Part shown: positions 9,700 to 61,553 of the stretch, piece after piece
Layout: the number at the start of each line of letters is the position of its first letter
Numbering within the stretch: position 1 is the first letter of the stretch
Notes under the pieces: generated by a model
What the model was told of the DNA's origin: nothing
Database searches by the model: none
What the model saw: the letters and a program-made list of their open reading frames with translations, nothing else
Translations under genes and position numbers: made by a program
Assembly (NCBI GenBank): GCA_018296165.2
Contig: JACKQL020000027.1
Coordinates: 310,001 to 374,000, forward strand
Source: Termitomyces sp. T153
Lineage: Eukaryota > Basidiomycota > Agaricomycetes > Agaricales > Lyophyllaceae
DNA length: 64,000 nucleotides
Reading direction: 5' to 3'

Positions 9700-11475
9700 T
9701 CAGCAGAAGTGCAGGGAGTCCAACATTAACAAGGCTACAAGTACAAAATATAGGAATAGGAGAGCGCGGGGCAATGAGACACCGGAACCCAGAAGGCCCC
9801 TACTCCTCCTCCCCCCCCCCGAACCCACCTCTGCTATCCTTCCCACCAGATCCACCTCCAGCTGCGCTACTACCATCACCAGAACTTTGGGATGCCCCAG
9901 GAGCGGCTCCACCACGTCCATTGCCACCTCCCACCATGCTCTGGGGTCTGCTGTCACCCTCCGCCGATGTCCTGCCAGCAGACGCCCCATCTGCGTGACC
10001 TCCTGCCCCAAATCCAGTGGGAGATCCCCAGGCATCCTCACCAACCCATTGTGGATGGACCCCAGTGCCGCTGATGCTCTGTTGAGGAGGATGCAATGCT
10101 CTCTGGCCCAGTCTGCAGAATCAAATATCAGCTCATAGTAAACAGGAGATGAGGGGAGCACTTACAGAGCACTCCTCACCACCCCAAGGCCGCCTTGTTG
10201 GCAAGCCACTCTTCCCGCCGCTGCACCCTCTCCACCGTCACTTGGGTCACCTCTGCACTGGACCCCCACTGAGTCCCCCGCATCCCTGACCCCTCCAATC
10301 GTTGCCCTGCCACCTCTGCCCACGCCTCCAATGGCCTCATGTGCGCTCACAGCTCTTGAAGCTGCGACAGTCACTCTGTGGTGGTCCCCACAGCAATATC
10401 TTTATCCCTACGCACCAAGTCCCATTCTTTCCGAGCCTCATCCAGTTCCCTCCAAAGCCCGTCCCTCTCCTCCCCCACCCTACGGACTTCCTCCCCACGT
10501 GTGGCCAACAACCTCTCCAACTCCTCTGCTTGATGCCGCAGGAAAGCCTCAGCGACCGACCACAACCCTTCTGCAGACTGCTCAACCAAGGCCCTAGAAG
10601 TCGGGGAATACACCATAGGACCTAGAGGGCCCACCATCGCCAGCTCCTCCCGTGCCCACTTGCTAGGACCCACCTCCGGCAAGGAGAATGCCCTCCATTT
10701 ACCCTTGTCATGTGTCATGGGGGCCCCCTCCCTCTGCCCACCCCGTGGGGGCCGCCCCACACCAACTCCCCCCTCTACTCCAGAACCCCTCCCTGAGACC
10801 CTACCCCTCCGACCCTCCTCCAACTGCGCTGCAACCCACTCATGGTCCCACCCCTGCTCTGCTGCAATGCAAGCAGCACACCAGTTCAGAGTGACAGAGC
10901 ACTTCTCGTGCCGTGAGCAACATGGGAGACACACTGACATGTCCCACCGCACTCCCAGCACGGGCTCCTCAAACTCGCACTGTTCACCCTGCCAGGTACA
11001 GGACGTGCACTAGAAACGTGGGTTAGCTTGATAGGGAAGAAACATGCCAATGACGCACTAGGGCCACTGCCTGACACCACTCCAACGTCGGGGGACCTCT
11101 TGCTTGCCCTGCAGCCTCTGCAAAGTACTCCGGCGTCATGTCCACCTGCGTGACTCTCGACCCCATAAGGATGGGGTGGACCACCCTGGGGACCATACCA
11201 GACCTGGAACAAGAAGCAAGGACCATTTCCCCCGCCGACTGCGCTGGAGCCTCCCCCAACATAAGCCCCAAGGGACCCGCCACTGCTGCCGACAACTCTG
11301 ACAGGAACTATTCAAGCACTCCAGCCACGACAAGCAAGAGACAATACTTATGACTACGGTACATTGCCCACACCCGCCTACAGTCTCCCTGACCCTCAGA
11401 GTCCTCCAAGGAAGAAGTCAAGGTATGTGCCAATGGGGAGGGGGACACTGCTGGAGAATATGTGGAAGACGACAT
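9700..11475 (-). pseudogene. Antisense spliced gene of element G: CxxC-cluster, coiled-coil protein
   Basis: This lies on the strand opposite gag-pol, between the chromodomain and the 3' LTR. Inferred exons (minus) are 11475-11352, 11297-11059, 11009-10166 and 10112-9700; they sum to 540 codons with phases 1, 0 and 1. Exon 1 starts MSSST and includes an acidic stretch. Exon 3 begins with two C-x2-C-x6-C motifs (CTSC-TWQGEQ-C and CLPC-CSRHEK-C), then a charged, Leu-rich region likely to form a coiled coil. Exon 4 opens with WAREHCILLNRAS. Intron 2 has a GCTAAC branch site. Intron 1 now starts AT instead of GT, and exon 3 carries TGA stops near 10331, 10349 and 10172. Function unknown; the start, introns 1 and 3 and the C-terminus match the copies in A, E and F. 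Confidence 0.65.
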
Positions 11476-11684
11476 TGGAAAAATTTGGGAACCCCAGAGT
11501 ATGTCTGATCCTTTTCAATGACTAGGAAAGAACCCCCTGAGTGGCAGCCATGCTTCGACTTCATTCCCCACGCCTCCGCCGCTACTGCAGTCTGATCAAT
11601 ATTGCTTGACTTTGATTTCCACACCCCACTGATCCCCAAACTGTACTCTGTGTCTCAAGGGTCTCAACACTGAAGGGGGGGTGA

Positions 11685-12632: not shown

Positions 12633-13460
12633 GTACCCCTTCTGTTAGGAATCCCATTTCTCTCCTCTGAATGAATTGTGATTGACATGCATGGCTGCTC
12701 AGTGCTAGACAAATGCACAGGATATGATCTCTGTTCACCCCCTCCATGATGACCACCAACTAAGTCACCTAAGTATATACCTCCACCACATATGCCTAAG
12801 AAGCTGTGGCTGCCAAAACCTGCTCCATTTGAGAAGGTGCTCCCACCTGACCTTAACAGACAAGCCTTGCCTGAGTCAGTCATGCAATGGTACACATGTG
12901 GATGGGAACTCTAGCATTCCAGGGGCAGCTGCAGAAGAAGGATGCTGAATTGAAGCTGAAATTTGCAGACCAATTCCCCACACATCTACCAGACACCACA
13001 GACAAGGTTCCTGACCAAATCTATCACTGCATCTGCCTGAAGGACCCACACAAGGTGGTGAATGCAAGAGGGTATGCCACACCCAAAAAGTAACATGGCA
13101 AATGGAAGAAGCTGCTGGATGAGCATATCAAGGCAGGAAGGCTTCAACCATCATCCTCAGAGTATGCATCCCCATCATTCTGTATACCCAAATATCAAAA
13201 TGGGGTACCTGACATGACAGTCCCCCCCCCCATTGGGTAAACAACTATCATGAGTTGAACAGGGACACAGTGTGGGACAATTACCCCCTCCCCAGAGTTG
13301 ATGATATACTAGCAGCATGTGGGTGGGGAAAGATCTTCAGGAAGTTGGACTTGACAAACTCCTTCTTCCTGACCTGGATGCACCCAGACAACATTCTTCT
13401 CACAGCTGTGCAGACAACTTGGGGCCTATACAAATGCAAAAATTGAAGACAGCCTCTGGC
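12633..13460 (+). mobile_element. Fragment of a second Ty3/Gypsy family (RT N-terminal half)
   Basis: The sequence at about 12900-13440 encodes, with a few stops and shifts, the start of a reverse transcriptase. The recognisable part is DNYPLPRVDDILAACGWGKIFRKLDLTNSFF at 13276-13370 (positions approximate), followed by MHPDNILLTAV. This is the RT 1-2 region typical of Ty3/Gypsy and different from element G. The YxDD region and everything after it are absent; the frame ends at 13440 where unrelated sequence with a short repeat begins. No LTRs or protease were seen. Confidence 0.75.
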
Positions 13461-32131: not shown

Positions 32132-33296
32132 TGTCACGACCCGTTCCCCAAAACCCCGCACATCGTCCATCAAACCCCCGAACCCCCAAAAGGACCCCCA
32201 ACGCTCCGCCGAACTTCCGCCCATGCCCACGCCTACCTCGGCTAACTCCGACACCTCCCCGGCTAACTCCGACGGCCCCCTGGCCAACTTCGGTGCCTGC
32301 CCCGCAGCCACTGACACTTACCCTGGGCTTCCCAAACCCCGAGAACCACCCCCGCTATTCCTGATCTTCGCCCACCCATCATTAACTCAACACCCTGCTT
32401 CCTCCGACCTATTCCGGAATATCACGACAACCTCGGAACAACCCGCGATCCCATCAACGTATCAGCGCGGCACGATCTTCGATCACAACTGACACCCGCC
32501 CACTCCGTCAAGCCCCGCCAAGCCCCGCCGCCACAGCCGACGTACCCCGAAGTCCTCCGGTAGTCAGTATATAAGTCATCGAGTAGCTCTTCGTACCCCA
32601 GTCTTGATATTGCTTAACGTTACCTATGGTCTGATTGCTTCCTTTTTGTGTTTCGTGTTCGTTTTCGTGTCTTTTTCTCCTTACTCTCAGTTTCCCGGTC
32701 TTATCTCAGTCTCCCGATCTTATCTCAGTCTCCCGGTATTATCTCAGTCTCCCGGTCTTGTCTCGTCCCCTTTTCGTTATCGTTCTCGTTATCGTTTCGT
32801 ACCTCCACTCGAATCTACTCTTGTTCCATAATGTCTCGTCCAACGCCGTCTCGGTGACGTCGTCTGACCCTTGTGCCCAATTCTTCATCAACCCTAACGA
32901 CCTCACGAACTCCGCGATTATAATTACGAACCCCGACACCCCTTACCAGGTCCGAACCTCACTCTTCGCTCGGTCCCGGACTCCATCAACTCCAAATGAT
33001 CTCCCATCAAACCCCGGCTCCGCCCCCATTGATCACACAGCCACCTACTCCCTTGCTTCCGCAAATCTCCCGTACGGCCTTCTGCCTGAACCCCGCCAAG
33101 ACCGTCTCATTTCCCCACAATCCGACTTCTCCGGACCTTCCCGGATCCATCTGGATCACATCTCCCCAATTACCCGTGCAAACCACCAGGACCCAGAATG
33201 TCTTTGAGTGTCCGGTCACCAATGCAGGGGAATCACGCCCGCCTAGTAAGGACTCGCCCAGTGCAGCTGCGCCCCCGAGGTCAGCGGACCCTGACA
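32132..33296 (+). repeat. 5' LTR of element A
   Basis: TGTCACGACC to CCCTGACA, 1165 bp. It contains a TATA element (TATATAAG, 32568-32575), followed about 30 nt later by the likely start region AGCTCTTCGTACC, then four copies of the 19-bp minisatellite (about 32683-32760). Confidence 0.95.
32568..32575 (+). promoter_or_regulatory. LTR TATA box
   Basis: TATATAAG is conserved at the same place in every LTR of the family (for example 37275-37282 and 50519-50526). It marks the likely U3/R promoter of the element. Confidence 0.6.
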
Positions 33297-35623
33297 TAAT
33301 ATCAAGACTCGACCTTACCCCGTCCGTGATGCCCGCATTATCTCCGCACACACAATCAAATAACTCCGATGTCTATGGTCTACCCGCGCCGGGGAACCCT
33401 TATGATTCATACGGCCCTGCCCAATTTGCCGAGGCACATCGAGTCGTGGATCTGACACCAAACGTCCCCTCCGCTCCAGTTACTTTCATACAACGGTTCC
33501 CCCCACGGACACCTTCCCCAACTCACACCCAACTCCCAACCCCTCGCGCAAACCGTCAAATCATCTTCCACCGGCCCCCCAGCAACCCCGCAGACCGACG
33601 AACGCGACTAATCACCAACAACATCACCAAACCCTATTATCGACCCCCTCCAAGGAAATAAACCCTCCGACAACTAACCCCGAAACCATCGAAATCAAGC
33701 TCGAATCCACCACAGGACAAGAACCTCAGACCTAGGCTATGCTCCAACCCCGTGACCTGCTTCCGGACCTCGATCGATCGGCCGTCACCTCCGCCCAACA
33801 AATGAAGGGGCCCCGACTTCCCCGACCCGACCCTGACAACCCCGGAACAGGACCAAAACATCCCCGAGCTTACACTCCGCCACCAGACTACGCCACCTCC
33901 CACGAAGGGATCCCCAGCATAGGGGTCACCCCGAACCAACTATAGGAAAAAGGACCCTATACGAAGTAATTCCCCAAGTGCTCTAAATTCGCTGACATGT
34001 TCATATAAGGGAGGGAGAAGCCCCACCATCATCCAGAAAACAACGATCGGCCATTTAAGCGACCCGACAACCCCCAGGGGCACGCGCTCCCATATCCTCA
34101 AAAGACTTCCCCCATATGGCTCGACGACCCAAAACGACCCTGCGCCAGCCCGAAACAGTCCCACCCAGACCCCTCCGAACCCATCAACCCGGCTCCGGAC
34201 CCTGGCGACAAGACTCCAGGGCCTCCACTCCGACCCCGACATCTGACCAAGAAAACTCACAGCGCCGGCTCGACAATGATGCCCTGGTAGCCCCAACTCC
34301 GCAACAGAAATCACCACCCACTCCGAACCCCGCCCCTACACCGGAATATGTCCGCCCGAACAGGGGCCACATCACCGGGGCCTCCAGACAAGCTGGCAGT
34401 GCCTCCCCCCACTACCACCCCTGCACTTGCACAATCTCCGGACCTCTCCGGAACACGAATGAAGAGTAAATCCGACCCTGCCGCATCCCCCGGGGAGCCC
34501 CACTCCAGTGCCCTCCCGCGGCCGACCTTCCCGCCGCCCCAACAACCATGAACAACCAACAAACCCCCACCGAGTGACCCTTGAGTCGACTCCGGGACCA
34601 CCCACTTCTTCCCGATGAAGGGACCACAGACCCCCGAACCTCCGAACTCGAGGAAGTATCAGAAATACGTAAGACCCCCTTTGTCCGCCGCGGGCTTACC
34701 TTTGGTCAGGAGAGCAATATCACGTAGATGACCCGGAACCCCAAATTGGGCCCCGGGCCCGAAGGAACTGGTTGGGACTGATCACCCCGCATCCTACCCC
34801 CTCAGTCATCGACACTCCGGAGCACACCAAAGCGCCACCCGAAGCAGGCCCGCCCACAGACGCAGCACTCCAGAACACAACCCCGACCCGGACCAACTAT
34901 ACTGCGAAGACGAACCCCGCCTCACCCAACCCCGCCAATAAATAAAAAAAGGCCCGCCCGCCTTCACCACCAATACCGACGCAAGGGCTAGACCATGGGA
35001 AGACCCCCATTACCCCCCGCCCACCGCACCGCCAAGACAACCAAAGCCCCGAACCCGTTGGGCGCCGTACAAAATTCAAAGGCCACCCTTTACTACCAAA
35101 ACGGCGCACGTCCCCTACACCCCCAGTCGAAAATTTCCGAGAAACAAATCCAACGACACCGCCCGAAATGCCGGGGACCCCACCGGAGAACTCCCACCAA
35201 CCCCGACAGACCCCGGGAGCCCTCCTGCGATGCCCCGCCCCGTCCCGACCAACCCCGGGACTAGCCAGCGCAGACGGCACTAGCGGGCGTAAACCCCGCC
35301 TCTGGACTCACTAGGGATTCAACTCCCTCTCACACCCCTGCGTGTTTCGCTTACTTTGCCCTCCAACAAAACTAAAAATTTCACTTCACACGCCCAGGGA
35401 CCAAGAAATGACATGTTCGCGTACAAAAGATCATATATACATTAGGCGGGGAAGGCAGCAAGTCCGAGAGCGACAAGAAACGAGGCCCACGCCCATCTCA
35501 CTCCCTCCCCGGACCTCCCGGAAGCCCAACCCCCAGGTCGACCTCCATCTGGGCCCGCACCACCGCTAGGATCTCCGCCAACCCCGGCAATGCCTCCCCC
35601 GCATCGGCCGCCACCTCCCACCA

Positions 35624-36628
35624 CTACCCCGGGGCCACCGCATTGCGTCGCCGATGCCCCGCCAGCAACCTCTCCAACCGCGCCATTCCCTGCTGCAACT
35701 CCAGAGGCTGGACCGCGGACCCCTGCGTCAACCCGTCCTGAATCGATGCGAACGCCGCGGAGGCACTGTCCAAGAGGACCCGATGCTCCCGCACCCAGCC
35801 TAAACTCCGAAAATGAACCGTCAATAACGAACGGAGGAACGGGAGACAACTCACGAAGAATCCCCGCACGACCCGAGGCGGCCTCGTTGGCCAACCAATC
35901 CTCCCTCCGCCTCGCCGCCTCCAGCTCCGCCCACAACGCATCCCCCTCCGGAACTCGTCCCCGCCCCTCCGCTTCCCCCGCGGGTTGCCCCTCCACCTGC
36001 GCCAGACGCTCCCGCAGACCCCGCACCTCTAGCGCCCGCTCCGTCGCCACGCGCACCGAAGTATTCCTCTCCCGCTCCATCGCTTCCTTCTCCGTCCGCG
36101 CCGCGTCACGATCCTCCCTCGCCCGGCGGAGCTCCCCCTCCCGTACTGCCAACGACGTCGTCAAGGCCTCCACCTGCTTGCGAAGGAAGACCTCCGTGAT
36201 TGAAGGAATCGGCGCGGAGGGACTCGACGACCGCTCCGAGGGAACGCCAGGGACAGGGGAAAAGAGGGAAGACTCGGGAGGCCCCGCCGACAACTCGCGC
36301 CCACGCGGCCTCTTGCTGGGTCCCGCCCCCGAGGGTGGGGAAGCTCGACGCTTTCCCCGAACCACCACCGAAGACGCCCCCTTCCCCTTTGGCACCGCGG
36401 GACGAAACTTGGTCCGCTTCGGAACCCCCGGAAAGTCCACCACTACTACTACGGACGACTCTACCGGAACCCCGTTAACCATCCCGAAAGGAGAATTCGA
36501 CAACACTTACGACTCCGGTCCCTAACGCTACCCCGGCGCCGACGCTCGAACTCCTCACCCCCACTGTCATACACCACCACCTCGTCTAAATCGGCGGGAG
36601 AAACCACTGGAACGCTGGGGGAAGACAT
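35624..36628 (-). pseudogene. Antisense spliced gene of element A (coiled coil), early stop
   Basis: Exons (minus) 36628-36511, 36460-35855 and 35799-35624 give 299 residues; phases are 1 and 1. Introns are 50 and 55 nt with GTAAGT and GTGAGT donors. The protein starts MSSPSVPVVSPADLDEVVVY, has an acidic DSGGEE patch, a Val-rich strand (SSVVVVVDFPGVP), a basic region (KGKGASSVVVRGKRR), then a long Arg/Glu/Leu-rich coiled coil (about residues 140-235, from EVFLRKQVEALTTSLA to REDWLANEAASGR). The last exon encodes WVREHRVLLDSASAAFASIQ. A TAG at 35624-35626 ends it 42 residues before the stop used in E and F. Both preceding exons are fully open. A TTTAAA lies 37 nt upstream of the start. Function unknown; it may regulate or assist the element. 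Confidence 0.6.
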
Positions 36629-36825
36629 GACGAAATTTGGGAAACCCCGGGGCACGCCCAAAGCTTTAAATTGAGTGAGGAGGACCCTGACGAAACGGCG
36701 GCCGCGCTTCGACTTCGCCTCCCACGCCGCTATCACTCGCTGCGGATTGATCAATATTGCTCGGCTTCGACTCCCACGCCCCGCCGATCCCCGTCCTACC
36801 CCGCGTCTCGAAGGGTCTCGACGCT

Positions 36826-36838
36826 GAAAGGGGGGTGA
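36826..36838 (+). other. Polypurine tract of element A
   Basis: GAAAGGGGGGTGA directly precedes the 3' LTR. Plus-strand DNA synthesis of LTR elements is primed here. The same tract precedes the 3' LTRs of G (11672-11684) and F (61541-61553), and, reversed, follows L6 of E (52567-52580). Confidence 0.85.
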
Positions 36839-38003
36839 TGTCACGACCCGTTCCCCAAAACCCCGCACATCGTCCATCAAACCCCCGAACCCCCAAAAGG
36901 ACCCCCAACGCTCCGCCGAACTTCCGCCCATGCCCACGCCTACTTCGGCTAACTCCGACACCTCCCCAGCTAACTCCGACGGCCCCCTGGCCAACTTCGG
37001 TGCCTGCCCCGCAGCCACTGACACTTACCCTGGGCTTCCCAAACCCCGAGAACCACCCCCGCTATTCCTGATCTTCGCCCACCCATCATTAACTCAACAC
37101 CCTGCTTCCTCCGACCTATTCCGGAATATCACGACAACCTCGGAACAACCCGCGATCCCATCAACGTATCAGCGCGGCATGATCTTCGATCACAACCGAC
37201 ACCCGCCCACTCCGTCAAGCCCCGCCAAGCCCCGCCGCCACAGCCGACGTACCCCGAAGTCCTCCGGTAGTCAGTATATAAGTCATCGAGTAGCTCTTCG
37301 TACCCCAGTCTTGATATTGCTTAACGTTACCTATGGTCTGATTGCTTCCTTTTTGTGTTTCGTGTTCGTTTTCGTGTCTTTTTCTCCTTACTCTCAGTTT
37401 CCCGGTCTTATCTCAGTCTCCCGATCTTATCTCAGTCTCCCGGTCTTATCTCAGTCTCCCGGTCTTGTCTCGTCCCCTTTTCGTTATCGTTCTCGTTATC
37501 GTTTCGTACCTCCACTCGAATCTACTCTTGTTCCATAATGTCTCGTCCAGCGCCGTCTCGGTGACGTCGTCTGACCCTTGTGCCCAATTCTTCATCAACC
37601 CTAACGACCTCACGAACTCCGCGATTATAATTACGAACCCCGACACCCCTTACCAGGTCCGAACCTCACTCTTCGCCCGGTCCCGGACTCCATCAACTCC
37701 AAATGATCTCCCATCAAACCCCGGCTCCGCCCCCATTGATCACACAGCCACCTACTCCCTTGCTTCCGCAAATCTCCCGTACGGCCTTCTGCCTGAACCC
37801 CGCCAAGACCGTCTCATTTCCCCACAATCCGACTTCTCCGGACCTTCCCGGATCCATCTGGATCACATCTCCCCAATTACCCGTGCAAACCACCAGGACC
37901 CAGAATGTCTTTGAGTGTCCGGTCACCAATGCAGGGGAATCACGCCCGCCTAGTAAGGACTCGCCCAGTGCAGCTGCGCCCCCGAGGTCAGCGGACCCTG
38001 ACA
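36839..38003 (+). repeat. 3' LTR of element A
   Basis: 1165 bp, the same length as the 5' copy and differing at about seven positions by eye, mostly transitions. TATA at 37275-37282. It is followed by the target duplication ACACC and the rest of the interrupted recombinase gene. Confidence 0.95.
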
Positions 38004-43898: not shown

Positions 43899-43946
43899 AG
43901 AAACCATACTACACAACCACTGACTACATCAAGAAAGAACACCAAA

Positions 43947-50065: not shown

Positions 50066-51256
50066 TGTCACGACCCATCCCCTGAGCCCCCGCACATCGC
50101 CCATCAACCCCCCGAACCCCCAAAAACCCCCGACGCTCTGCCGAACTTCCACCCATGCCCCATGCCTATTTCGGCTAACTCCGACGCCTCCCCGGCTAAC
50201 TCTGACGGCCCCCTGGCCAACTTTGGTGCCTTCCCCGCAGCCTCTGACACTTACCCTGGATCTCCCAAACCCAAGAACCACCCCTGCTGTTCCCAATCTT
50301 CGCCACCCATCATCAACTCAACACCCTGGTTCCTCCGACCTATTCTGGAGCATCACAACAACCTCGGGGCGACCCGTGTTCCCCAATGATCCCATCAACG
50401 TATCAGCACGGCCCGATCCTCGATTGCAACTGACACCCACCCACTCCGTCGAGCTCCGCCAAGCCCCGCCGCTGCAGCCAACGTACCCCAAAGTTCTCCG
50501 GTAGTCAGTATATAAGCCGTCGAGTAGCTCTTCGTACTCTAGTCTTGATATTGCTTAACGTTACCTATGGTCTGATTGTTTCCTTTTCGTGTTTTGTGTT
50601 TTGTTCTCCTTACTCTCAGTCTCCCGGTCTTATCTCAGTCTCCCGGTCTTATCTCAGTCTCCCGGTCTTATCTCAGTCTCCCGGTCTTATCTCAGTCTCC
50701 CGGTCCTGTCCTGTCTCCATTTTGCTATTATTCTTGTTATCGTCTCATATCTCCACTCGAATCTACTCTTGTCCCATATCAACCTCATCCCATTTTGCCT
50801 GATGCTGTCTCGGTGACTCCGTCCGACCATTGTGCCCAAGTCTTCGTCAACCTTAACGACCTCACGAACTCCGCGATTATGATTACAAACCCCGACACTC
50901 TTTTACCAGGTCCGAACCTCACTCTTTGCTCGGTCCCAGACTCCATCAACTCCAAATGATCTCCCATCAAATCCCGGCTCCATTCCCATTGATCACACAG
51001 CTGCCTACTCCTTTGCTTCCGCGAATCTCCCATACGGTCTTCTGCCTGAACCCCGCCAAGACCATCTCGTTTCCTCGCAATCCGACTTCTCCAGACCTCC
51101 CTGGATCTGTCCGGATCACATCCCACCAACTATCCGCACAAGCCATCAGTGCTTGGAATGTCTTCGAGTGTTTGGTTACCAGTGCAAGGGGATCACGCCC
51201 ACCTAGTAAGGACTCGCCCAGTGCAGCTGAGCCCCTGAGGTCAGCGGAACCTGACA
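50066..51256 (+). repeat. 5' LTR of element F
   Basis: TGTCACGACC to CCTGACA, 1191 bp, with TATATAAG at 50519-50526. It is the longest LTR here because it holds five copies of the 19-bp minisatellite. Confidence 0.93.
50617..50711 (+). repeat. 19-bp minisatellite in the LTR
   Basis: Unit CAGTCTCCCGGTCTTATCT, five copies here (the last diverged). Other LTRs of the family hold one (5809-6955), two (61554-62676), three (both LTRs of E), or four (both LTRs of A; 1-770). It lies downstream of the TATA box in R/U5. Confidence 0.9.
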
Positions 51257-51413
51257 TAATATCAAGACTCTACCTTACCCCGTCTGTGATGCCCGCATTA
51301 TCTCCGCACACACGATCAAATAACTCTGATGTCTATGGTCTACCCATGCCTGGAAACCCTTATGATTCATACGGCCCTGCCCAATTTGCCGAGGCACATT
51401 GAGTCGCGGATCC

Positions 51414-52566
51414 TGTCAGGTTCTGCTGACCTCAGGGGCTCAGCTGCACTGGGCGAGTCCTTACTAGGCAGGCGTGATCCCCTTGCACTGGTAACTGAAC
51501 ACTCGAAGACGTTCCGGGCCCTGGTGGCTTGTGCAGATAGTTGGGGGGATGTGATCCAGACAGATCTGGGGAGGTCCGGAGAAGTCAGATTGTGAGGAAA
51601 CGAGACGGTCTTGGCGGGGTTCAGGCAGAAGGCCGTACAGGAGATTCGCGGAAGCAAAGGAGTAGGCGGCTGTGTGATCAATGGGAATGGAGCCGGGATT
51701 TGATGGGAGATCATTTGGAGTTGATGGAGTCTGGGACCAAGCAAAGAGTGAGGTTCGGACCTGGTAAAGGAGTGTTGGGGTTCGTAATCGTAATCGTAAT
51801 CGCGGAGTTCGTGAGGTCGTTAAGGTTGATGAAGGCTTGGGCACAATGGTCGGACGGAGTCACCAAGACAGCGTCAGGCGAAATGGGATGGGGTTGATAT
51901 GGGACAAGAGTAGATTCGAATAGAGATACAAAGTGATAACAAGAACGATAACGAAATGGAGACGAGACAAGACCGGGAGACTGAGATAAGACCGGGAGAC
52001 TGAGATGAGACCGGGAGACTGAGATAAGAAAACAAGACACGAGACACGAAACAATCAGACCATAAGTAACGTTAAGCAATATCAAGACTAGAGTATGAAG
52101 AGCTACTCAATGACTTATATACTGACTACCGGAGGACTTCGGGGTACGTTGGCTGTGGCGGCGGGGCTTGGTGGAGCTCAATGGAGGGGGCGGGTGTCAG
52201 TTGTGATCGAGGATCGTGCCACGCTGATACGTTGATGGGATCATTGGAGAACGCGGGTTGCCCCAAGGTTGTCGTGATACTCCGAAATAGGTCGGAGGAA
52301 CCAGGGTGTTGAGTCGATGATGGGTGGCAAAGATCGGGAACAGCGGGGGTGGTTCTCGGGGTTTGGGAGGCCCAGGGTAAGTGTCAGTGGCTGCGGGGCA
52401 GGCACCGAAGTTGGCCAGGGGGCCGTCAGAGTTAGCCGGGGAGGCGTTGGAGTTAGCCGAAGTAGGCATGGGGCATGGGCAGAAGTTCGGCAGAGTGTTG
52501 GGGGTTTTTTGGGGGTTCAGGGGGTTGATGGACGATGTGCGGAGTTTCAGGGGACGGGTTGTGACA
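51414..52566 (-). repeat. 3' LTR of element E
   Basis: Minus orientation; plus-strand ends TGTCAGG and GTGACA. The adjacent complement of the polypurine tract (TCACCCCCCTTTC, 52567-52579) identifies it as the 3' LTR. Three minisatellite copies. Confidence 0.92.
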
Positions 52567-52776
52567 TCACCCCCCTTTCAGCGTCAAGACCCTTTGAGAC
52601 GCGGGGCAGGACAGGGATCAGCGGGGCGTGGGAGTTGAAGCCGAGCAATATTGATCAATCCGCAGCGAGTGATAGCGGCATGGGAGACAAAGTCGAAGTG
52701 CGGCCGCCATTTTGTCAGGGTTCTCCTCAATCAATTAAAAGCTTTGGGCGTGCCCCAGGGTTTCCCAAATTTTGTC

Positions 52777-53907
52777 ATGTCTTCCCCCAGCATTCCAGTA
52801 GTCTCTCCCGCCGATTTGGACAAGGTGGTGGTGTACGACAGTGGGGGTGAGGAGTTCAAGCATTGGCGCTGGGGTAGCGTCAGGGACCAGAGTCGTAAGT
52901 GTTGTCGACTTTTCTTTTCGGGATGGTTGACGGGGTTCCTGTAGAATCGTCCGTGGTAGTAGTAGTGGATTTTCCGGGGGTCCCGAAACAGACCAAGTTT
53001 CATCCCGCGTTGCCAAAGGGGAAGGGGGCGTCCTCGGCGATGGTTTGGGGGAAGCGTCGAGCCTCCCTGCCCTCGGGGGCAGGACCCAGCAAGAGGCCGC
53101 GTGGGTGCGAGTTGTCGGTGGGGCCTCCGGAGTCCTCCCTTCTTTCTCCTGTCCTGGGCGCCCCCTTGGAACGGTTGTCAAGTCCCCCCACGCCAATTCC
53201 TTCAATCATGGAGGTCTTCCTTTGCAAGCAGGTGGAGGCCTTGATGACGTCGTTGGCAGTATGGGAGGGTGAGCTCCGACAGGCGAGGGAGGATCATGAC
53301 GCGGCACAGACGGAGAAGGAAGCGATGGAGCGGGAGAGGAACACTTCGGTGCACATGGCGACGGAGTGAGCGTTAGAGGTGCGGGGTTTGCGGGAGCGTC
53401 TGGCGCAGATGGAGGGGCAGCCCATGGGGGAAGCAGAGGGGCGGGGACGAGTTCCGGAGGGGGATGCGTTGTGGGTGGAGCTGGAGGCGGCGAGGCGGAG
53501 GGAGGATTGGTTGGCCAACGAGGCCACCTCGGGTCGCACGGGGATCCTTTGTGAGTTGTCTCCTGTTCCTCCGTTTGTTATTGACGGTTCATTTTCTGGG
53601 TTTAGGCTGGGTGCGGGAGCATCGGGTCCTCTTGGACGGTGCCTCCGCGGCATTTGCGTCGATTCAGGACGGGTTGACACAGGGGTCCACAGCCCAGCCT
53701 CTGGAGTTGCAGCAGGGGATGGCGCGCTTGGAGAGGTTGTTGGCGGGGCATTGGCGGTGCAATGCGGTGGCCCCGGGGTCGTGGTGGGAGGTGGCAGCCG
53801 ATGCGGGGGAGGCATTGCCAGGGTTGGCGGAGATCTTAGCGGTGGTGCGGGCCCAGATGGAGGTTGACCTGGGGGTTGGGTTGCCGGGGGGTCCGGGGAG
53901 GGAGTGA
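52777..53907 (+). pseudogene. Antisense spliced gene of element E (coiled coil), full length but one stop
   Basis: Exons 52777-52894, 52945-53550 and 53606-53907 sum to 342 codons (341 residues), with the same two intron positions and phases as in A. The protein starts MSSPSIPVVSPADLDKVVVY, with a coiled coil from EVFLCKQVEALMTSLA to REDWLANEATSGR and the final exon WVREHRVLLDGASAAFASIQ, ELQQGMARLERLLAGH, SWWEVAADAGEALPGLAE, ending GPGRE. The only disruption is TGA at 53367-53369, where A has CGA (Arg). It is on the strand opposite the element's own gag-pol. Confidence 0.65.
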
Positions 53908-56550
53908 GATGGGTGTGGGCCTCGTTTCTTGTTGCTCTCGGACTTGCTGCCTCCCCCACCTATTGTATATATAATTTTTTGTATGTGAACATGTCCTTTT
54001 CTTGGTCCCTGGGCATGTGAAGTGAGATTTTAGTTTTGTATGAGGGCGAAGTAAGCGAAACACGCAGGGGTGTGAGAGGGAGTTGAATCCCTAGTGCACC
54101 CAGAGGCGGGGTTTATGCCCGCTAGTGCCGCCTGTGCTGGCTAGTCCCGGGGTTTGTCGGGATGGGGTGGGGCATCGCAGGGAGGGCTCCCGGGGTCCGG
54201 CGGGGGTGGCGGGATTTCTCCAGTGGAGTCCCGCGGCATTTCGGGCGGTGTTATTTGAGTTCAATTCTCGGAAATTCCGCCTGGGGGTGTAGGGGTTCTC
54301 GTTTGTCTGCAGCGGGGACGTGCGCCATATTGGTATCAGAGGGTGGACCTTCAAATTTCTCACGGTGCCCAGCAGGTTTGGGGCTTTGGTTGTCCTGGCA
54401 GTGCGGTTGGCGGGGGGGCAATGGAGGTCTTCCCATGGTCTGGCCCTTATGCTGGCACTGGTGGTGAGGGCGGTGGGGCCTTCTTCATTGGCGGGGTTCA
54501 GTGAGGTGAGGTTTGTCCTTGCGGCATAGTTGGTCCAGGTTGGGGTTGTGTTCCGGAGTGTTGTGTCTGGGGGTGGGCATGTTTTGAGTGGTGCTTTGGT
54601 GTGCTCCGGAGTGCCGATGACTGAGGGGGTAGGAGGCGGGGTGATCAGTCCCAACCAGTTCCTTCGGGCCCAGGGCTGAAATTTGGGGTTCTGGATCATC
54701 TACGTGATATTGCTCTCCTGACCAAAGGTAAGCCCGAGACGGACAAAGGGGGTCTTACATATTTCTGATACTTCCTTGAGTTCGGAGGTCCGGGGGTCAG
54801 TGGTTCCTTCATCGGGGAAGAAGTGGGTGGTCCCGGAGTCGACACAAGGGTCACTCGGTGGGGGTTTGTTGGTTGTTCACAGTTGTTGGGGCGGCGGGGA
54901 GGTCGGCTGCGGGGAGGCACTGGAGTGGGGTTTCCCGGGAGATGCGGCAGGGTCAAGGCTACTCTTCATTTGTGTTCCGGAGCGGCCCGGAGATTTGTTG
55001 CAAATGTGGGGGTGGCAGTGGGGAGAGGCACTGCTTGCTTTTCTGGAGGCTCCGATGATGTGGTCCCTGTTTGGCGGACATATTCCGGTGTAGGGACAGG
55101 ATTCGGAGCGGGTGGCGATTTCTGTCGCGGAGTTGGGGCTACCAAGGCATCATTGTCGAGCTGGCGCCGTGAGTTCTCTTGATCAAATGTCGTGGTTGGA
55201 GTGGAGGCCCTGGAGTCATGTCGCCAGGGTCCGGAGCTGTGTTGAAGGGTTCGGAGGGGTCTGGGTCGGACAGTTTTAGGCTGGCGCGGGGTTGTTTGGG
55301 TTGTCAAGCCAGGTGGGGGAGGTTCCTTGAGGATATCAGAGCGTGTGCCCTTTGGGTCATCAGGTCGCTTAAATGGCCGATTGTCATTTTCTGGATGATG
55401 GTGGGGCTTCTCCCTCCCTTATATGAACATGTCAGCGAATTTAGAGTACTTAGGGAACTACTTCGTATAGGGTCCTTTTTCCTATAGTTAGTTCGGGGTG
55501 GCTCCTATGCTGGGGATTCCTTCGTGGGAGGTGGCGTAGTCTGGTGGTGGAGTTTAGGCTTGGGGGTGGCATGCAGGGGGGGGGGTTTTGGCGTCCAGGG
55601 TCCTCATTGTCGGGGGCTCCAGATTGTGTGGGGGAGGGTGGTGAAATAGTGGCATGGTCCGGAGTTGTCCCTTGTTGGGAGTGGGGTGCCATGGTTCTCC
55701 TTATTAACATCTAGAGGCTCGGGGATGTTTTGGTCTTGTTCCGGGGTTGTCGGGGTCGGGTTGGAGGTGTTGGGGCCCCTTCATTTGTTGGGCAGAGGTG
55801 ACGGCCAAATCGATCGAGGTCTGGAAGCAGGTCCTGGGGTTGGAGCGTAGCCTAGGTCTGAGGTTCTTGTTCTGTGGTTGGGGTTGTTGGGTCAAGCTTA
55901 ATTTCGGGGGTTTCGGGGCTAGTTGTCAGAGGGTTTAGTTCCTCAGAAAGGGGGGGGGGGGTCGGGGTGAGGGTCGGGGGTCGATAGTAGGGTTTGGTGA
56001 TGTTGTCAGCGTTTAATCGCATCCATCGGTCTGCGGAGTTGCTAGTGGGTCAGCAGATCCACAGGCGGGCTTTGAAGAAGCACGTTCTCAGTGGTCTCAT
56101 CGGGTTGGCAATCCTCATGCAAGGGGTGACTGCTTCGTGGCGGGTTGGTGTTATTGTTTGTCGGAGGGTTGGCACGGTGCTGGAGACATTGTTGCTCGTT
56201 TGGTCAGATGGTTGGCAGGTTTTTAGGATGTTGTTCTTTGGGTGATGTCGGGGTCAACTTTGTGCGAGAGAACGGGGTGGGAGATGATTTGACGGTTTGC
56301 ACGAGGGGTTGGAGGTTGGGTGGGAGTCAGGGAGGGTGTTCGTGGGGGAGCCATTGTATGGAAGTAACTGGAGCGGAGGGGACGTTTGGTGTTGGATCCG
56401 TGACTCAATGTCCCTCGGCAAGTTGGGCAGGGCCGTATGAATCATAAGGGTTTCCAGGCACGGGTAGACCATAGACATCAGAGTTATTTGATCGTGTGTG
56501 CGGAGATAATGCGGGCATCACGGACGGGGTAAGGTAGAGTCTTGATATTA
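53908..56550 (-). pseudogene. Interior of element E: decayed gag-pol remnants
   Basis: On the minus strand the same scraps as in A are present, including the EVVP block near 55455 (KRTLYEVVP) and a segment equivalent to the integrase zinc region near 54720. No long intact sense frame. Position 56550 adjoins the 5' LTR, with the conserved TAATATCAAGACTC just inside it. Confidence 0.65.
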
Positions 56551-57703
56551 TGTCAGGTTCCGCTGACCTCAGGGGCTCAGCTGCACTGGGCGAGTCCTTA
56601 CTAGGCGGGCGTGATCCCCTTGCACTGGTAACCGAACACTCGAAGACGTTCCGGGCCCTGGTGGCTTGTGCAGATAGTTGGGGGGATGTGATCCAGACAG
56701 ATCCAGGGAGGTCCGGAGAAGTCGGATTGTGAGGAAACGAGACGGTCTTGGCGGGGTTCAGGCAGAAGGCCGTATGGGAGATTCGCGGAAGCAAAGGATT
56801 AGGCTGCTGTGTGATCAATGGGAGCGGAGCCGGGTTTTGATGGGAGATTATTTGGAGCTGATGGAGTCTGGGACCGAGCGAAGAGCGAGGTTCGGACCTG
56901 GTAAAGGAGTGTTGGGGTTCGTAATCGTAATCGTAATCGCGGAGTTTGTGAGGTCGTTAAGGTTGATGAAGGCTTGGGCACAATGGTTGGACGGAGTCAC
57001 CAAGACAGCGTCAGGCGAAATGGGATGGGGTTGATATGGGACAAGAGTAGATTCGAATAGAGATACAAAGCGATAACAAGAACGATAACGAAATGGAGAC
57101 GAGACAAGACCGGGAGACTGAGATAAGACCGGGAGACTGAGATGAGACCGGGAGACTGAGATAAGAAAACGAGACACGAGACACGAAACAATCAGACCAT
57201 AAGTAACGTTAAGCAATATCAAGACTAGAGTACAAAGAGCTACTCGATGACTTATATACTGACTACCGGAGGACTTCGGGGTACGTCGGCTGTGGCAGCG
57301 GGGCTTGGCAGAGCTCGACGGAGGGGGCGGGTGTTGGTTGTGATCAAGGATCGTGCCACGCTGATACGTTGATGGGATCATTGGAGAACGCGGGTTGCCC
57401 CAAGGTTGTCGTGATACTCCGGAATAGGTCGGAGGAACCAGGGTGTTGAGTCGATGATGGGTGGCGAAGATCAGGAACAGCGGGGGTGGTTCTCGGGGTT
57501 CGGGAGGCCCAGGGTAAGTGTCAGTGGCTGCGGGGCAGGCACCGAAGTTGGCCAGGGGGCCGTCAGAGTTAGCCGGGGAGGCATCGGAGTTAGCCGAAGT
57601 AGGTGTGGGGCATGGGCGGAAGTTCGGTGGAGCGTTGGGGGTTTTTTGGGGGTTCGGGGGGTTGATGGACAATGTGCGGGGTTTCAGGGGACGGGTCGTG
57701 ACA
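56551..57703 (-). repeat. 5' LTR of element E
   Basis: 1153 bp, minus orientation, ending GTGACA at 57703, next to GATCC. Three minisatellite copies, the same as its partner. Confidence 0.92.
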
Positions 57704-57708
57704 GATCC

Positions 57709-60700
57709 AACACCAAACGTCCCCTCTGCTCTGGTTACATTCATACAATGGCTCCCCCCATGGACACCCTCCCCAACTCACACCCAACTCCCAACCCCTC
57801 GCGCAAACCATCAAATCATCTCCCACCCCACTCTTACCCTCTCCGTCAACTCCGCTCTCTCACACAAAGTTGACCCCGACATCACCCAAAGAACAGCATT
57901 CTAAAACCTGGCAACCATCTGACCAAATGAGCAACAACGTCTCCGGCACCGCGCCAACCCTCCGACCAACAATAACGCCAACCCGCCGCAGAACAGTCAC
58001 CCACTGTGCGAGGATTGCCAGCTACGAAGAGACCACTGAGAATGCGCTTCTTCAAAGCACGCCTGTGGATCTGCCGACCCACTAGCAACTCCGCAGACCA
58101 ACGAATGCGACTAAACGTCGACAACATCACCGAACCCTACTATCGACCCCCGACCCTCACCCCGACCCCTCCCCCTTTCCGAGGAACTAAACCCTCCGAC
58201 AACTAGCCCCGAAACCACCGAAATCAAGCTCGACCCAACAACCCCAACCACAGAACAAGAACCTCAGACCTAGGCTACGCTCCAACCCCAGGACCTGCTT
58301 CCAGACCTCGATTGATTTGGCCGTCACCTCCGCCCAACAAATGAAGGGGCCCTGACACCTCCGACCCGACCCCGACAACCCCGGAACAAGACCAAAACAT
58401 CCCCGAGCCTCTAGACGTTAATAAGGAGAACCATGGCACCCCACTCCCGACAAGGGACAACTCCGGACCATGCCACTATTTCACCACCCTCCCCCACACA
58501 ATCCGGAGCCCCCAACAATGAGGACCCTGGACGCCAAAACCCCCCCACATGCCACCCCCGAGCCTAAACTCCACCACCAGACTACGCCACCTCCCACGAA
58601 GGAATCCCCAGCATAGGAGCCACCCCGAACTAACTATAGGAAAAAGGACCCTATACGAAGTAGTTCCCTAAGTACTCTAAATTCGCTGACATGTTCATAT
58701 AAGGGAGGGAGAAGCCCCACCCTCACCCAGAAAACGACGATTGGCCGATTAAGCGACCTGACGACCCAAAGGGCACACGCTCCGATATCCTCAAAGGACC
58801 TCCCCCACCTGGCTCGACGACCCAAACAACCCTGCACCAGCCCAAACTGCCTAACCCAGACCCCTCCGAACCCTTCAACACAGCTCTGGACCCTGGCGAC
58901 ACGACTCCAGGGCCTCCACTCCGACCACGACATTTGATCAAGAGAACTCATGGCGCCAGCTTGACAATGATGCCCTGGTAGCCCCAACTCCGCAACAAAA
59001 ATCACCACCCACTCCAAATCCCGCCCCTACGCCGGAATATGTCCGCCAAACAGGGACCACATCATCGGAGCCTCCAGAAAAGCAAGCAGTGCCTCTCCCC
59101 ACTGCCACCCCCACATTTGCAACAAATCTCCGGGCCGCTCCGGAACACAAATGAAGAGTAGCCTTGACCCTGCCGCATCTCCCGGGAAACCCCACTCCAG
59201 TGCCTCCCCGCAGCCGACCTCCCCGCCGCCCCAACAACCGTGAACAACCAACAAACCCCCACCAAGTGACCCTTGTGTTGACTCTGGGACCACCCACTCC
59301 TTCCCCGACGAAGGAACCACCGACCCCCAAACCTCCGAACTCGAGGAAGTATCAGAAATACGTAAGACTCCTCTGTCCATCTCGGGACTTACCTTTGGTC
59401 AGGAAAGCAATGTCACATAGATGACCCGGAACCTCAAATTTTGGCCCCGGACCCAAAGGAACTGGTTGGGACTGATCACCCCGCATACTGCCCCCTCGGT
59501 CATCGACACTCTGGAGCACACCAAAGCACCACCTGAACATGCCCGCCCACAGATGCAATACTCCGGAACACAACCCCGACCCAGACAAACTATGCCGTGA
59601 GGACGAACCTCGCCTCACCGAACCCTGCCAATGAAGAAGGCCCCGCCGCCCTCGCCACCAGTGCCGGCATAAGAGCCAGACCATGGGAAGACCTCCATTA
59701 CCCCCCCACCAACCGCACTGCCAAGACAACCAAAGCCCCAAACCCGCTGGGCACTGTGAAAGATTTGAAGGTCCACCCTCCGATACCAATACGGCGCACG
59801 TCCCCGCCAAAGACAAGAGAAAACCCCTACACCCCCAGTCAGAATTTCCAAGAATCGAACTCAATAACACTGCCCGAAATGCCGCGGAACTCCACTGGAG
59901 AACTCCCACCACCCCCGCCGAACCTCAGGAATCCTCCCTGCGATGCCCCGCCCCGTCCCGACAAACCCCGGGACTAGCCAGCACAGACGGCACTAGCGAG
60001 CATAAAACCCGCCTCTGGACTCACTAGGGATTCAACTCCCTCTCACACCCCTGCGTGTTTCGCTTACTTCGCCCTCATACAAACTAAAACCCCACTTCAC
60101 ATGCCCAGGGACCAAGAAAAGGACATGTTCGCGTACAAAAAAATTATATATACAATAGGCGGGGGAGGCAGCAAGTCCGAGAGCAACAAGAAACGAGGCT
60201 CGCACCCATCTCACTCCCTCCCCGGACCCACCGGCAACCCAACCCCCAGGTCGACTTCCATCTGGGCCTGCACCACTGCTAAGACCTCCACCAACCCCGG
60301 CAACGCCTCCCCTGCATCAGCCGCCACCTCCCACCATGATCCCGGGGCCACCGCATTGCGTCGCCGATGTCCTGCCAACAACCTCTCCAGTCGCGCCATC
60401 CCCTGCTGCAACTCCAGAGGCTGGACTGCGGACCCCTGCGTCAACCCGTCCTGAATTGACACGAATGCCGCGGAGGCACCGTCCAAGAGGACCCGATGCT
60501 CCCGCACCCAGCCTAAACCCAGAAAATGAACCGTTAGTAACGAATGGAGGAACGGGAGACAACTCACGAAGGATCCCCATGCGCCCCAAAGCGGCCTCGT
60601 TGGCCAACCAATCCTCCCTCCGCCTCGCCGCCTCCAGCTCCACCCACAATGCATCCCCCTCCGGAACTCGTCCCTGCCCCTCCGCTTCCCCCGCGGGCTG

Positions 60701-61553
60701 CCCCTCCATCTGCGTCAGACGCTCCCGCAAGCCCCGCACCTCTAACGCTCGCTCCATCGCCACGCGCACCAAAGTGTTCCTCTCCCGCTCCATGGCTTCT
60801 TTCTCCATCCGCACTACGTCACGGTCCTCCCTTGCCCATCGGAGCTCACCCTCCCATACTGCCAACGACGTCGTCAAAGCCTCCACCTGCTTGCGAAGAA
60901 AGACCTCCATGATCGAAGGAATCGGCGTGGGGGGACTCAACGACCGTTCCGAGGGGATGCCCAGGACAGGAGAAAAAAGGGAGGACTCCGGAGGCCCCGC
61001 CGACAACTCGCGCCCACACGGCCTCTTGCTGGGCCCCGCCCTGAGGGCGGGGAGGCTTGACGCTTCCCCCGAATCACCGCCGAAGATGCCCCCTTTCCCT
61101 TCGGCAACGCGGGACAAAACTTGGTCCATTTCGGAACCCCCGGAAAATCCACCACCACCACCACCACGGATGACTCTACAAAAGCCCTGTCAATCATCCC
61201 GAAAAGACAAGTCGACACCACTTATGACTCTGGTCCCTGATGCTAGCACGGTGCCGACGCTCAAACTCCTCCCCCCCACTGTTGTACACCACCACCTCGT
61301 CCGAATCAGCGGGAGGGACTACTGGAACGCTGGGGGAAGACATGACGAATTTTGGGAAACCCCGGGGTACGTCCAAAGCTTTTAATTGATTGAGGAGAAC
61401 CCTGATGAAGCGGCAGCCGCGCTTCGACTTCATCTCCCACACCGCTATCACTCACTGTGGATTGATCAATATTGCTTGGCTTCAACTCCCACGCCCCGCC
61501 GATCCCTGTCCTGCCCTGCATCTCGAAGGGTCTCGACACTGAAGGGGGGGTGA
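57709..61553 (+). pseudogene. Interior of element F (right part): decayed gag-pol remnants
   Basis: Plus-strand scraps collinear with A: the ACACCAAACGTCCCC region, the DMF-equivalent block near 58680-58710, the integrase zinc equivalent near 59385-59420, and the post-chromodomain region near 59970-60080. No long sense frame. The antisense gene occupies 60211-61343. Confidence 0.65.
60211..61343 (-). pseudogene. Antisense spliced gene of element F, frameshifted
   Basis: Exons (minus) 61343-61226, 61175-60568 and 60512-60211 match A and E in length except for a net +2 in exon 2 (one extra Val codon and a one-base loss near 61045), which shifts the frame inside the GPSKRP region. The donor of intron 1 is AT instead of GT, as in G. 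Intron 2 (60513-60567) is intact. The last exon retains WVREHRVLLDGASAAFVSIQ, GSWWEVAADAGEALPG and the terminal GPGRE, with the same stop as E. Confidence 0.6.

What the first reader, a model, noticed from the sequence alone, without database searches (positions are those of the whole stretch)
9700..61343. A conserved, spliced antisense gene carried by Gypsy LTR elements
Four element copies (G 11475-9700, A 36628-35624, E 52777-53907, F 61343-60211) carry, opposite to gag-pol and between the chromodomain region and the 3' LTR, a gene with the same start (MSS), an acidic patch in exon 1, a coiled coil, and a final exon beginning W-[VA]-REH. Intron 1 (50-54 nt) and the last intron (53-55 nt) fall at the same place and phase (1 and 1) in the old copy and the young copies, and the exon sums are exact multiples of three (540, 342, and 300 codons to the early stop in A). 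Position, phase and protein blocks are kept while the nucleotide sequence of G has diverged strongly; this is the pattern expected if the protein was selected. Antisense extra genes are known in some plant Gypsy lineages (for example Grande), but I do not know of this one being described; that novelty claim is inference.
Basis: partly seen in the sequence, partly recalled or inferred. Interest (0 to 1): 0.88.

Follow-up and report, generated by a model that had tools for sequence, protein, structure and literature searches.

The report
Antisense gene in mushroom retrotransposons
A family of jumping genes in a termite-farmed mushroom carries, on its back strand, a spliced protein-coding gene that natural selection has kept working, even in copies that have lost the genes they need to jump on their own.

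Summary
The antisense gene is real. The host is a Termitomyces. Full-length Gypsy chromovirus copies elsewhere in this genome carry an open 4-exon, 514-aa version between pol and the 3' LTR. Constraint follows the spliced reading frame, switching at the introns. The 0-fold/4-fold divergence ratio is 0.36, against 0.32 for pol of the same pair (0.35 against 0.19 outside CpG).

One claim is wrong. In this window only G has gag-pol. A, E and F are complete insertions with target-site duplications but no gag-pol found: non-autonomous elements whose only recognised gene is a shorter antisense version, 341 aa, without the cysteine domain. It is still constrained: ratio 0.09 outside CpG among nine backbone-checked copies.

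The long protein has six regularly spaced cysteines, a basic nuclear-localisation-like stretch, a long coiled coil and a conserved C-terminus. I think it is a nuclear dimeric regulator that favours its own element. DNA binding is weakly supported; no RNA was available.

Antisense extra genes are known (Grande, Retand, Boty brtn). New here: measured selection on a spliced one, and its retention as the sole recognised gene of a non-autonomous element.

The parts
11352..11475 (-). G antisense gene, exon 1 (MSS start)
   Evidence: projection of the L039 gene model; 124 nt
11059..11297 (-). G antisense gene, exon 2
10166..11009 (-). G antisense gene, exon 3: six-cysteine domain (open piece 10374-11009), NLS-like stretch, coiled coil; three in-frame stops
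9800..10112 (-). G antisense gene, exon 4 (W-A-REH C-terminal region); frame shifted near its end so the open frame runs on to about 9700
1973..9517 (+). G gag-pol (gag 1973-4061; pol 4034-5065, 5264-5812, 6956-9517), broken and interrupted by a solo LTR of the family (5809-6955, flanking repeat CTCCC)
   Evidence: tblastn with the gag and pol of L039; for the solo LTR
36511..36628 (-). A antisense gene, exon 1
35855..36460 (-). A antisense gene, exon 2 (NLS-like stretch, coiled coil); intron 1 is 36461-36510
35498..35799 (-). A antisense gene, last exon with one premature stop; last intron is 35800-35854
52777..52894 (+). E antisense gene, exon 1
52945..53550 (+). E antisense gene, exon 2 with one premature stop; intron 1 is 52895-52944
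53606..53907 (+). E antisense gene, last exon; last intron is 53551-53605
61226..61343 (-). F antisense gene, exon 1; following intron 61176-61225 does not begin with GT
60568..61175 (-). F antisense gene, exon 2, frame-shifted (608 nt instead of 606)
60211..60512 (-). F antisense gene, last exon, open
32132..38003 (+). Non-autonomous element A: LTRs 32132-33296 and 36839-38003 (99.4% identical), internal 3.5 kb without gag-pol match, target duplication ACACC
51414..57703 (-). Non-autonomous element E: LTRs 51414-52566 and 56551-57703 (95.7%), internal 4.0 kb without gag-pol match, target duplication GATCC; inserted into element F
50066..62676 (+). Non-autonomous element F: LTRs 50066-51256 and 61554-62676 (89.7%), target duplication GTCAC, split by E after its first 157 internal bases
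36629..36838 (-). A leader between the antisense ATG and the 3' LTR: end of the polypurine tract, ATATTGATCA core, A-rich (mostly TATA-like) run about 45 nt before the ATG
   Evidence: ten copies aligned (two young, G, seven short-version); promoter role inferred

Best explanation
A Ty3/Gypsy chromovirus family of Termitomyces carries a tail-to-tail antisense gene between pol and the 3' LTR. The gene has its own short leader next to the 3' LTR and is spliced (four exons in the full version, three in the short one). SHOWN by comparison: the protein is under purifying selection in its spliced frame, both in gag-pol-bearing elements and in a large non-autonomous family that has lost gag-pol and the cysteine domain. 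INFERRED: the protein enters the nucleus through a conserved basic stretch, dimerises through its coiled coil, and works through its conserved C-terminal domain as a regulator of its own element's transcription or chromatin. In the long version the six-cysteine domain would contact DNA. Because an element without gag-pol still pays to keep it, the protein probably favours mainly the copy that encodes it (cis preference). The short version may also pair with the long one and so tie the non-autonomous elements to the autonomous ones.
For: Open elements: in L039 and L040 a pol frame of 1394 aa and a gag frame of 699 and 728 aa, both gag frames running to the edge of the fetched stretch; L039 pol has PR, RT, RNase H, integrase, SH3 and chromodomain. 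The antisense gene ends about 230 bases from the end of pol and starts about 210 bases from the 3' LTR. In 70 of 150 last-exon hits the end of pol (SH3_Tf2-1) lies 450-507 bases downstream on the opposite strand.

Selection: 0-fold/4-fold ratio 0.37 to 0.38 between subfamilies, 0.23 to 0.36 without CpG sites; the two other same-strand frames give 1.1 to 2.8. Variants shared between copies, outside CpG: short version 9/491 against 18/137, p=3.7e-7; long version 18/769 against 26/216, p=4.8e-8.

Splicing: the constrained frame switches at introns as the splice model predicts; intron and 4-fold divergence are equal outside CpG in the short version, 0.064 and 0.066.

Non-autonomous version: among nine backbone-checked copies the ratio is 0.30, and 0.09 outside CpG, while the A and E backbones are 85.9% identical over the main 1573-column piece.

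Protein: six cysteines kept in 41 of 45 copies; cysteine domain and exon 4 most constrained; coiled coil predicted at high confidence; basic motif in 16 of 19 hand-picked proteins, a looser pattern in 191 of 242 held.
Against: No RNA or protein evidence at all. The cysteine domain scores below Pfam's cut-off for the fungal zinc cluster (17 against 21 bits), only its first half matches, and its AlphaFold model is low confidence. The short version lacks that domain, so DNA binding cannot be the only selected function. The C-terminal domain has no confident fold and no Pfam match. The coiled-coil region is only weakly constrained (0.65 to 0.71). Exon 1 of the long version shows no constraint among close copies (few changes, ratio 3.2). 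Outside CpG, pol is clearly more constrained than this gene (0.19 against 0.35). One short-version pair, E with L002, is not significant (all sites p=0.23, outside CpG p=0.051). The test of shared variants is weaker in the six G-like copies (ratio 0.52, p=0.013). Singletons are not purely neutral: with all sites counted they too are depleted at 0-fold positions. The mirror frame on the gag-pol strand also shows a wobble pattern (ratios 0.25 to 0.49), expected because its third positions coincide with those of the gene; it has at least 7 stops in each of ten copies checked. Cis preference is an inference from selection, not an observation.
Confidence: 0.55

Rival explanations
1. The antisense protein is a nuclear-import or integration cofactor: it escorts the element's cDNA or integrase to the nucleus or to chosen chromatin, rather than regulating transcription.
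For: Basic NLS-like stretch in both gene versions. The non-autonomous version needs integration as much as the autonomous one and borrows everything else, so a cis-acting import or targeting aid would be worth keeping. PMC7264820 and PMC11963269 (passages seen) report nuclear localisation for the Grande antisense protein.
Against: The autonomous elements already have a chromodomain integrase. The protein is read from an antisense transcript, not made as part of gag-pol.
Confidence: 0.25
2. The protein is a stand-in structural protein (a Gag-like or RNA-packaging factor) that lets the gag-less elements package their own RNA.
For: Predicted helical C-terminal domain and long coil; only gene recognised on the gag-less elements.
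Against: The autonomous elements carry both this gene and a normal gag. No Pfam gag domain in it. Nuclear-type basic motif.
Confidence: 0.08
3. The selected product is the antisense RNA (for example to limit silencing or to form double-stranded RNA), and the protein is incidental.
For: PMC7264820 (passages seen) discusses antisense RNA roles for such regions.
Against: Constraint is codon-structured: 4-fold sites and introns evolve alike while 0-fold sites are held. An RNA role would not give this pattern.
Confidence: 0.04
4. The short-version signal is inherited: its genes diversified on gag-pol-bearing elements and many independent, recent deletions produced the non-autonomous copies, so no selection acts on the latter.
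For: The list of pol ends used to look for gag-pol next to short-version genes holds only 150 of 1886 candidates.
Against: A and E share one gag-pol-less backbone that has itself diverged to 85.9% identity, so the loss predates their split, yet their genes differ at 9/497 0-fold against 22/122 4-fold sites outside CpG. 16 of 40 short-version genes (E included) run straight into that backbone; the seven fetched copies L002-L008 align to it over their pol-side flank; 0 of 40 have a listed pol end within 2 kb.
Confidence: 0.08

Closest known systems
[quoted passage not shown]
   Same: Same place, same orientation, present in many copies, encoded protein suspected to be nuclear or DNA-binding; some Retand clusters lack gag or parts of pol.
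   Different: Different host kingdom and lineage (fungal chromovirus); no TRP28 match; multi-exon gene; selection measured here; here some elements keep only this gene.
Boty brtn, the antisense extra gene of a Botrytis Gypsy element (Zhao et al. 2011, as cited in PMC7264820 and PMC8365987; the original was not seen)
   Same: Fungal Gypsy element with one antisense gene outside gag-pol.
   Different: Ascomycete host (recalled); I did not compare the proteins because I did not have the brtn sequence.
HTLV-1 HBZ, an antisense-encoded nuclear regulator of a retrovirus (mentioned in a passage of PMC11963269; splicing, coiled coil and bZIP details recalled)
   Same: Antisense gene near the 3' LTR with a nuclear coiled-coil regulator: the best analogy for how this might work.
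   Different: No sequence relation claimed; no bZIP match in Pfam at E up to 1. Analogy only.
Fungal Zn(II)2Cys6 transcription factors (Gal4, Put3)
   Same: Two CX2CX6C halves, with a coiled coil further on; phmmer aligns both halves to Put3, not significantly (E 0.8).
   Different: Halves resemble the classical ones in swapped order, 15 residues between them, Pfam score below cut-off.
Non-autonomous LTR elements (LARD/TRIM; BARE-2 without gag; recalled, BARE-2 also as a reference title)
   Same: LTR pair, target duplication, no gag-pol, high copy number.
   Different: LARDs as recalled have no conserved coding capacity; here one antisense gene is conserved.

Membership tests
Ty3/Gypsy chromovirus | RT, RNase H, integrase and chromodomain in one pol frame, aspartic protease, gag | tested here: met
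   Pfam on L039 pol and gag; G in the window carries the same genes by tblastn
Antisense additional ORF between pol and 3' LTR | ORF antisense to gag-pol, located between pol and the 3' LTR | tested here: met
   L039 in full, L040 and L042 for the LTRs; 70 of 150 last-exon hits have the pol end 450-507 bases downstream on the other strand
Antisense additional ORF between pol and 3' LTR | present in many copies of a family rather than one captured copy | tested here: met
   150 of 150 scored places; 45 distinct copies projected
Retand/Grande TRP28 proteins | TRP28 domain (PF04195) | tested here: not met
   No PF04195 among Pfam families at E up to 1
Boty brtn | sequence homology with BRTN | not tested
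   I did not have the BRTN sequence
Fungal Zn(II)2Cys6 (Gal4-type) proteins | Pfam Zn_clus above curated cut-off | tested here: not met
   17 bits against 21; first half alone 18.4 bits, second half no match
Fungal Zn(II)2Cys6 (Gal4-type) proteins | six cysteines as two CX2CX6C halves with a loop of about 5-12 residues (loop range recalled) | tested here: inconclusive
   CX2CX6CX15CX2CX6C at residues 122-158: both halves right, loop longer; all six kept in 41 of 45 copies
Fungal Zn(II)2Cys6 (Gal4-type) proteins | zinc binding and CGG-type DNA recognition | not testable with these tools
   AlphaFold model of this part has low confidence
Non-autonomous LTR retrotransposon | LTR pair, target duplication, no gag-pol | tested here: met
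   A, E, F: (Pfam pieces tested for A and E only)
HBZ-like retroviral antisense bZIP | bZIP domain | tested here: not met
   No bZIP family at E up to 1

The most novel reading that the evidence does not exclude
Elements of the A/E/F kind are a new sort of mobile unit: LTR retrotransposons that have discarded gag and pol but keep, under strong purifying selection, a single spliced antisense gene whose protein acts in cis for the copy that encodes it. It may do so by pairing with, and redirecting, the longer DNA-binding protein of the autonomous elements.
Probability: 0.4. Interest if true: 0.86.

Novelty: new variant of a known kind. Interest (0 to 1): 0.72.

Why it matters
What antisense genes of retrotransposons are for is described as unknown in the reviews seen (PMC7264820, PMC11963269, passages). 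Here many copies in one fungal genome (150 last-exon matches scored of 1190 candidates) give a natural experiment: by the plain measure the gene is nearly as constrained as pol where pol is present (less so outside CpG), and it is the only gene recognised where pol is gone. Non-autonomous elements are expected to lose trans-acting genes, so keeping one implies a benefit to the encoding copy, and this can be tested. These genes are also already deposited in Termitomyces proteomes as hypothetical proteins, so host gene counts there include transposon genes.

Tried and rejected
Rejected: chance open frame in GC-rich sequence (reverse frames have 7 or more stops in ten copies checked; the two other same-strand frames show no constraint). 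Rejected: gag-pol opposite all four copies. Rejected: F lacking a 5' LTR, my own first reading in note 1; the target duplications show F is split by E. Rejected: a perfect 18-bp palindrome upstream as the conserved binding site; of 35 leaders scanned it is perfect only in four of the five young copies, and only a shorter core is kept elsewhere.

Led nowhere: the cysteine halves against Pfam (second half: no match in three proteins); both AlphaFold models too weak for a fold search, so none was run; ten open pieces of the A and E backbones against Pfam, none matched at E 0.1. A homologue search drawn from the cysteine domain of P0234 found 5 proteins, the query included, all from one Termitomyces strain. 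The two wider searches listed 120 of 189 and 120 of 134 proteins, all Termitomyces in the rows shown. These searches need shared 5-residue words, so relatives in other fungi are not excluded.

Print: ten searches over open-licence PMC papers; of these I saw listings and abstract starts, plus passages of three papers. Nothing I saw described this gene; subscription papers and preprints are largely outside that library. One search found one paper holding Termitomyces, retrotransposon, Gypsy and transposable element together, about another fungus (listing only).

Sampling limits: L039-L043 and L050-L066 were picked mainly for a long open frame, so 18 open of 45 is not a genome-wide rate. Of 67 sequences matched, projected 48 (45 distinct); 19 with a match under 1300 bases were left out (the eight short-version loci L001-L008 and eleven others). 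Short-version copies were picked by DNA similarity to E (27 used: A, E, F and 24 of the other 39 hits). Pair averages reuse copies; the site counts avoid that, though linked sites remain. One search used 24 of 27 short-version and 27 of 45 long-version copies (21 young or middle, 6 G-like), those with identical exon lengths. L047-L049 were fetched with the wrong flank and used only for the last exon.
Full report
What was checked. The window is 64 kb of a 72.4-Mb genome. The 120 listed of 189 protein hits to the antisense product are all Termitomyces (strains T112, J132, Mn162 and one 'cryptogamus'), deposited as hypothetical proteins, so the host is a Termitomyces or very close to one.

The copies in the window. 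Self-comparison and direct repeats show four insertions of one family. A (32132-38003) has LTRs 99.4% identical and target duplication ACACC. E (51414-57703, minus strand) has LTRs 95.7% identical and target duplication GATCC. E sits inside F (50066-62676), whose LTRs are 89.7% identical, with target duplication GTCAC. G is a diverged relative with gag-pol at 1973-9517, interrupted by a solo LTR (5809-6955, flanking repeat CTCCC). tblastn of the family's own gag and pol hits only G, apart from one weak hit at 13243-13434 outside the four elements. The internal regions of A and E gave no Pfam match in ten open pieces tested.

The gene. In A and E the antisense gene has exons of 118, 606 and 302 nt with introns of 50 and 55 nt; A and E each have one premature stop, and F is frame-shifted. 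In G there are four exons, three stops, and a first intron that does not begin with GT. Open versions exist elsewhere in the same genome. Five elements (L039-L043) have antisense genes at least 99% identical. In the two whose coding frames were listed, L039 and L040, pol is open over 1394 aa and gag over 699 and 728 aa, the gag frames running to the edge of the fetched stretch. All five have an open antisense gene of 124, 239, 871 and 311 nt, 514 aa, with introns of 51, 49 and 51 nt starting GTGAGT and ending CAG. LTR pairs of L039, L040 and L042 are 99.1, 99.9 and 99.3% identical. In the G-like subfamily, at about 70% nucleotide identity, the usual exon lengths are 124, 239, 862 and 311 and the introns 54, 49 and 53: lengths change, the reading frame does not. 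Of 45 distinct long-version copies projected, 18 are fully open, 15 of them with GT-AG at all three introns; this sample was partly chosen for open frames. Of 27 short-version copies, chosen by DNA similarity only, 15 are fully open with GT-AG introns.

Selection. Pooled over pairs, 0-fold against 4-fold divergence is 0.052 to 0.140 (young against middle group) and 0.192 to 0.511 (young against G-like); without CpG sites the ratios are 0.23 and 0.36. The two other same-strand frames give 1.1 to 2.8. The mirror frame on the other strand gives 0.25 to 0.49, because its third positions coincide with those of the gene, but it holds 7 or more stops in each of ten copies checked. For the pair L040 and L044 the ratio is 0.36 for the antisense gene and 0.32 for pol, and 0.35 and 0.19 outside CpG: pol is the more constrained of the two. 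Site counts remove the pair reuse. Variants shared by two or more copies, outside CpG, fall on 9 of 491 0-fold and 18 of 137 4-fold sites in the short version (p=3.7e-7), 18 of 769 and 26 of 216 in the young and middle long-version copies (p=4.8e-8), and 44 of 790 and 23 of 214 in six G-like copies (p=0.013). Singletons of the young and middle copies, mostly decay after insertion, show no significant difference outside CpG (40 of 769, 15 of 216, p=0.32), but with all sites they do (p=0.01); singletons of the short version are depleted at 0-fold sites (p=0.001 outside CpG), perhaps because the sample mixes lineages.

Splicing without RNA. Read exon by exon against genomic frames, the constrained frame is 0, 2, 0 in the three short-version exons (22 copies), exactly as the two introns require, and 0, 1, 1 in exons 2-4 of the long version (21 copies). 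Exon 1 of the long version has few changes and shows no constraint. Intron divergence outside CpG (0.064) equals 4-fold divergence (0.066) in the short version.

The non-autonomous twist. The short-version gene lacks the cysteine region and sits on a backbone without gag-pol. 16 of 40 short-version genes, E included, run directly into the E-type backbone among its 40 best-scored places. All seven other fetched copies (L002-L008) align to the A backbone, not to pol, over their pol-side flank. 0 of 40 have a listed pol end within 2 kb, against 70 of 150 hits of the last-exon search; only 150 of 1886 pol-end candidates were listed, so absence has limited power. Among nine backbone-checked copies (A, E, L002-L008) the 0-fold/4-fold ratio is 0.30, and 0.09 outside CpG; of seven single pairs printed, six are significant and one (E with L002) is not. 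A and E backbones are 85.9% identical over 1573 columns and 77.8% over a further 333, while their genes differ at 9 of 497 0-fold and 22 of 122 4-fold sites outside CpG. So the protein appears to have been held after gag-pol was gone.

The protein. Residues 122-158 of the long version carry CX2CX6CX15CX2CX6C; all six cysteines are kept in 41 of 45 copies. Pfam gives the fungal zinc cluster at 17 bits, below the 21-bit cut-off, and only the first half matches, to the second half of the profile. phmmer aligns both halves to Put3 in swapped order, at E 0.8, which is not significant. A permuted zinc cluster is a lead, not a result. A basic stretch of the form GK-RAS-GPSKR, resembling a bipartite nuclear localisation signal (recalled consensus), is found in 16 of 19 hand-picked proteins; a looser pattern, written after seeing them, in 191 of 242 held. 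AlphaFold predicts a long coil at 270-368 with high confidence and, less surely, helices at the C-terminus; the rest is low. By segment the cysteine domain (0.24) and exon 4 (0.27) are most constrained and the coil least (0.65-0.71).

Control region. The roughly 210 bases between the 3' LTR and the antisense ATG align across ten copies of the long and short versions (only one of them G-like), with an A-rich, mostly TATA-like run about 45 bases before the ATG. This is compatible with a private promoter but also overlaps the polypurine tract of the element, so conservation there has another possible cause.

How it probably works. An antisense transcript from beside the 3' LTR is spliced and makes a nuclear, dimeric protein that regulates its own element. 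Shown: gene structure by comparison, selection in the spliced frame, retention without gag-pol. Inferred: transcription, nuclear entry, dimerisation, DNA or chromatin contact, cis benefit.

Comparison with the known. [quoted passage not shown] their functions are given as unknown (PMC7264820, PMC11963269 and PMC8365987, passages seen). This gene belongs to that class by position. It lacks the TRP28 domain. Some recently active Retand clusters lack gag or parts of pol (PMC11963269). An element keeping only the antisense gene, and a test of selection on it, were not in anything I saw; the searches and their limits are named in Tried and rejected.

Noticed in passing
window 50066-62676: Nested insertion: non-autonomous element E (target duplication GATCC) lies inside its relative F (target duplication GTCAC), in opposite orientation, 157 internal bases after F's 5' LTR.
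   Followed up: yes
window 28442-32245: A second kind of retroelement: an open frame with reverse transcriptase (Pfam RVT_1) followed by a frame that looks by eye like a tyrosine recombinase (no Pfam match); element A is inserted at its end.
   Followed up: partly
window 41500-47640: Open frames that look by eye like a non-LTR retrotransposon (endonuclease-like piece at 44007-44648); the three pieces given to Pfam had no match.
   Followed up: partly
window 5809-6955: Solo LTR of the same family inserted into the pol gene of G, flanked by the repeat CTCCC.
   Followed up: yes
P0098, P0105, P0236, P0238 (public Termitomyces proteins): A third gene version with the cysteine domain, whole or in part, but otherwise close to the short version: a possible intermediate between the two.
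   Followed up: partly
L039 1683-1700 and the same place in L040, L041, L043: A perfect 18-bp palindrome between the 3' LTR and the antisense start in four of the five young copies; not found as a perfect palindrome in the other leaders scanned (35 in all).
   Followed up: partly
splice sites: Many decayed copies have AT instead of GT at the start of the first or last intron but not of the middle one; in L039 the first and last donor sites follow a C and the middle one a G, as CpG decay after insertion would give.
   Followed up: partly
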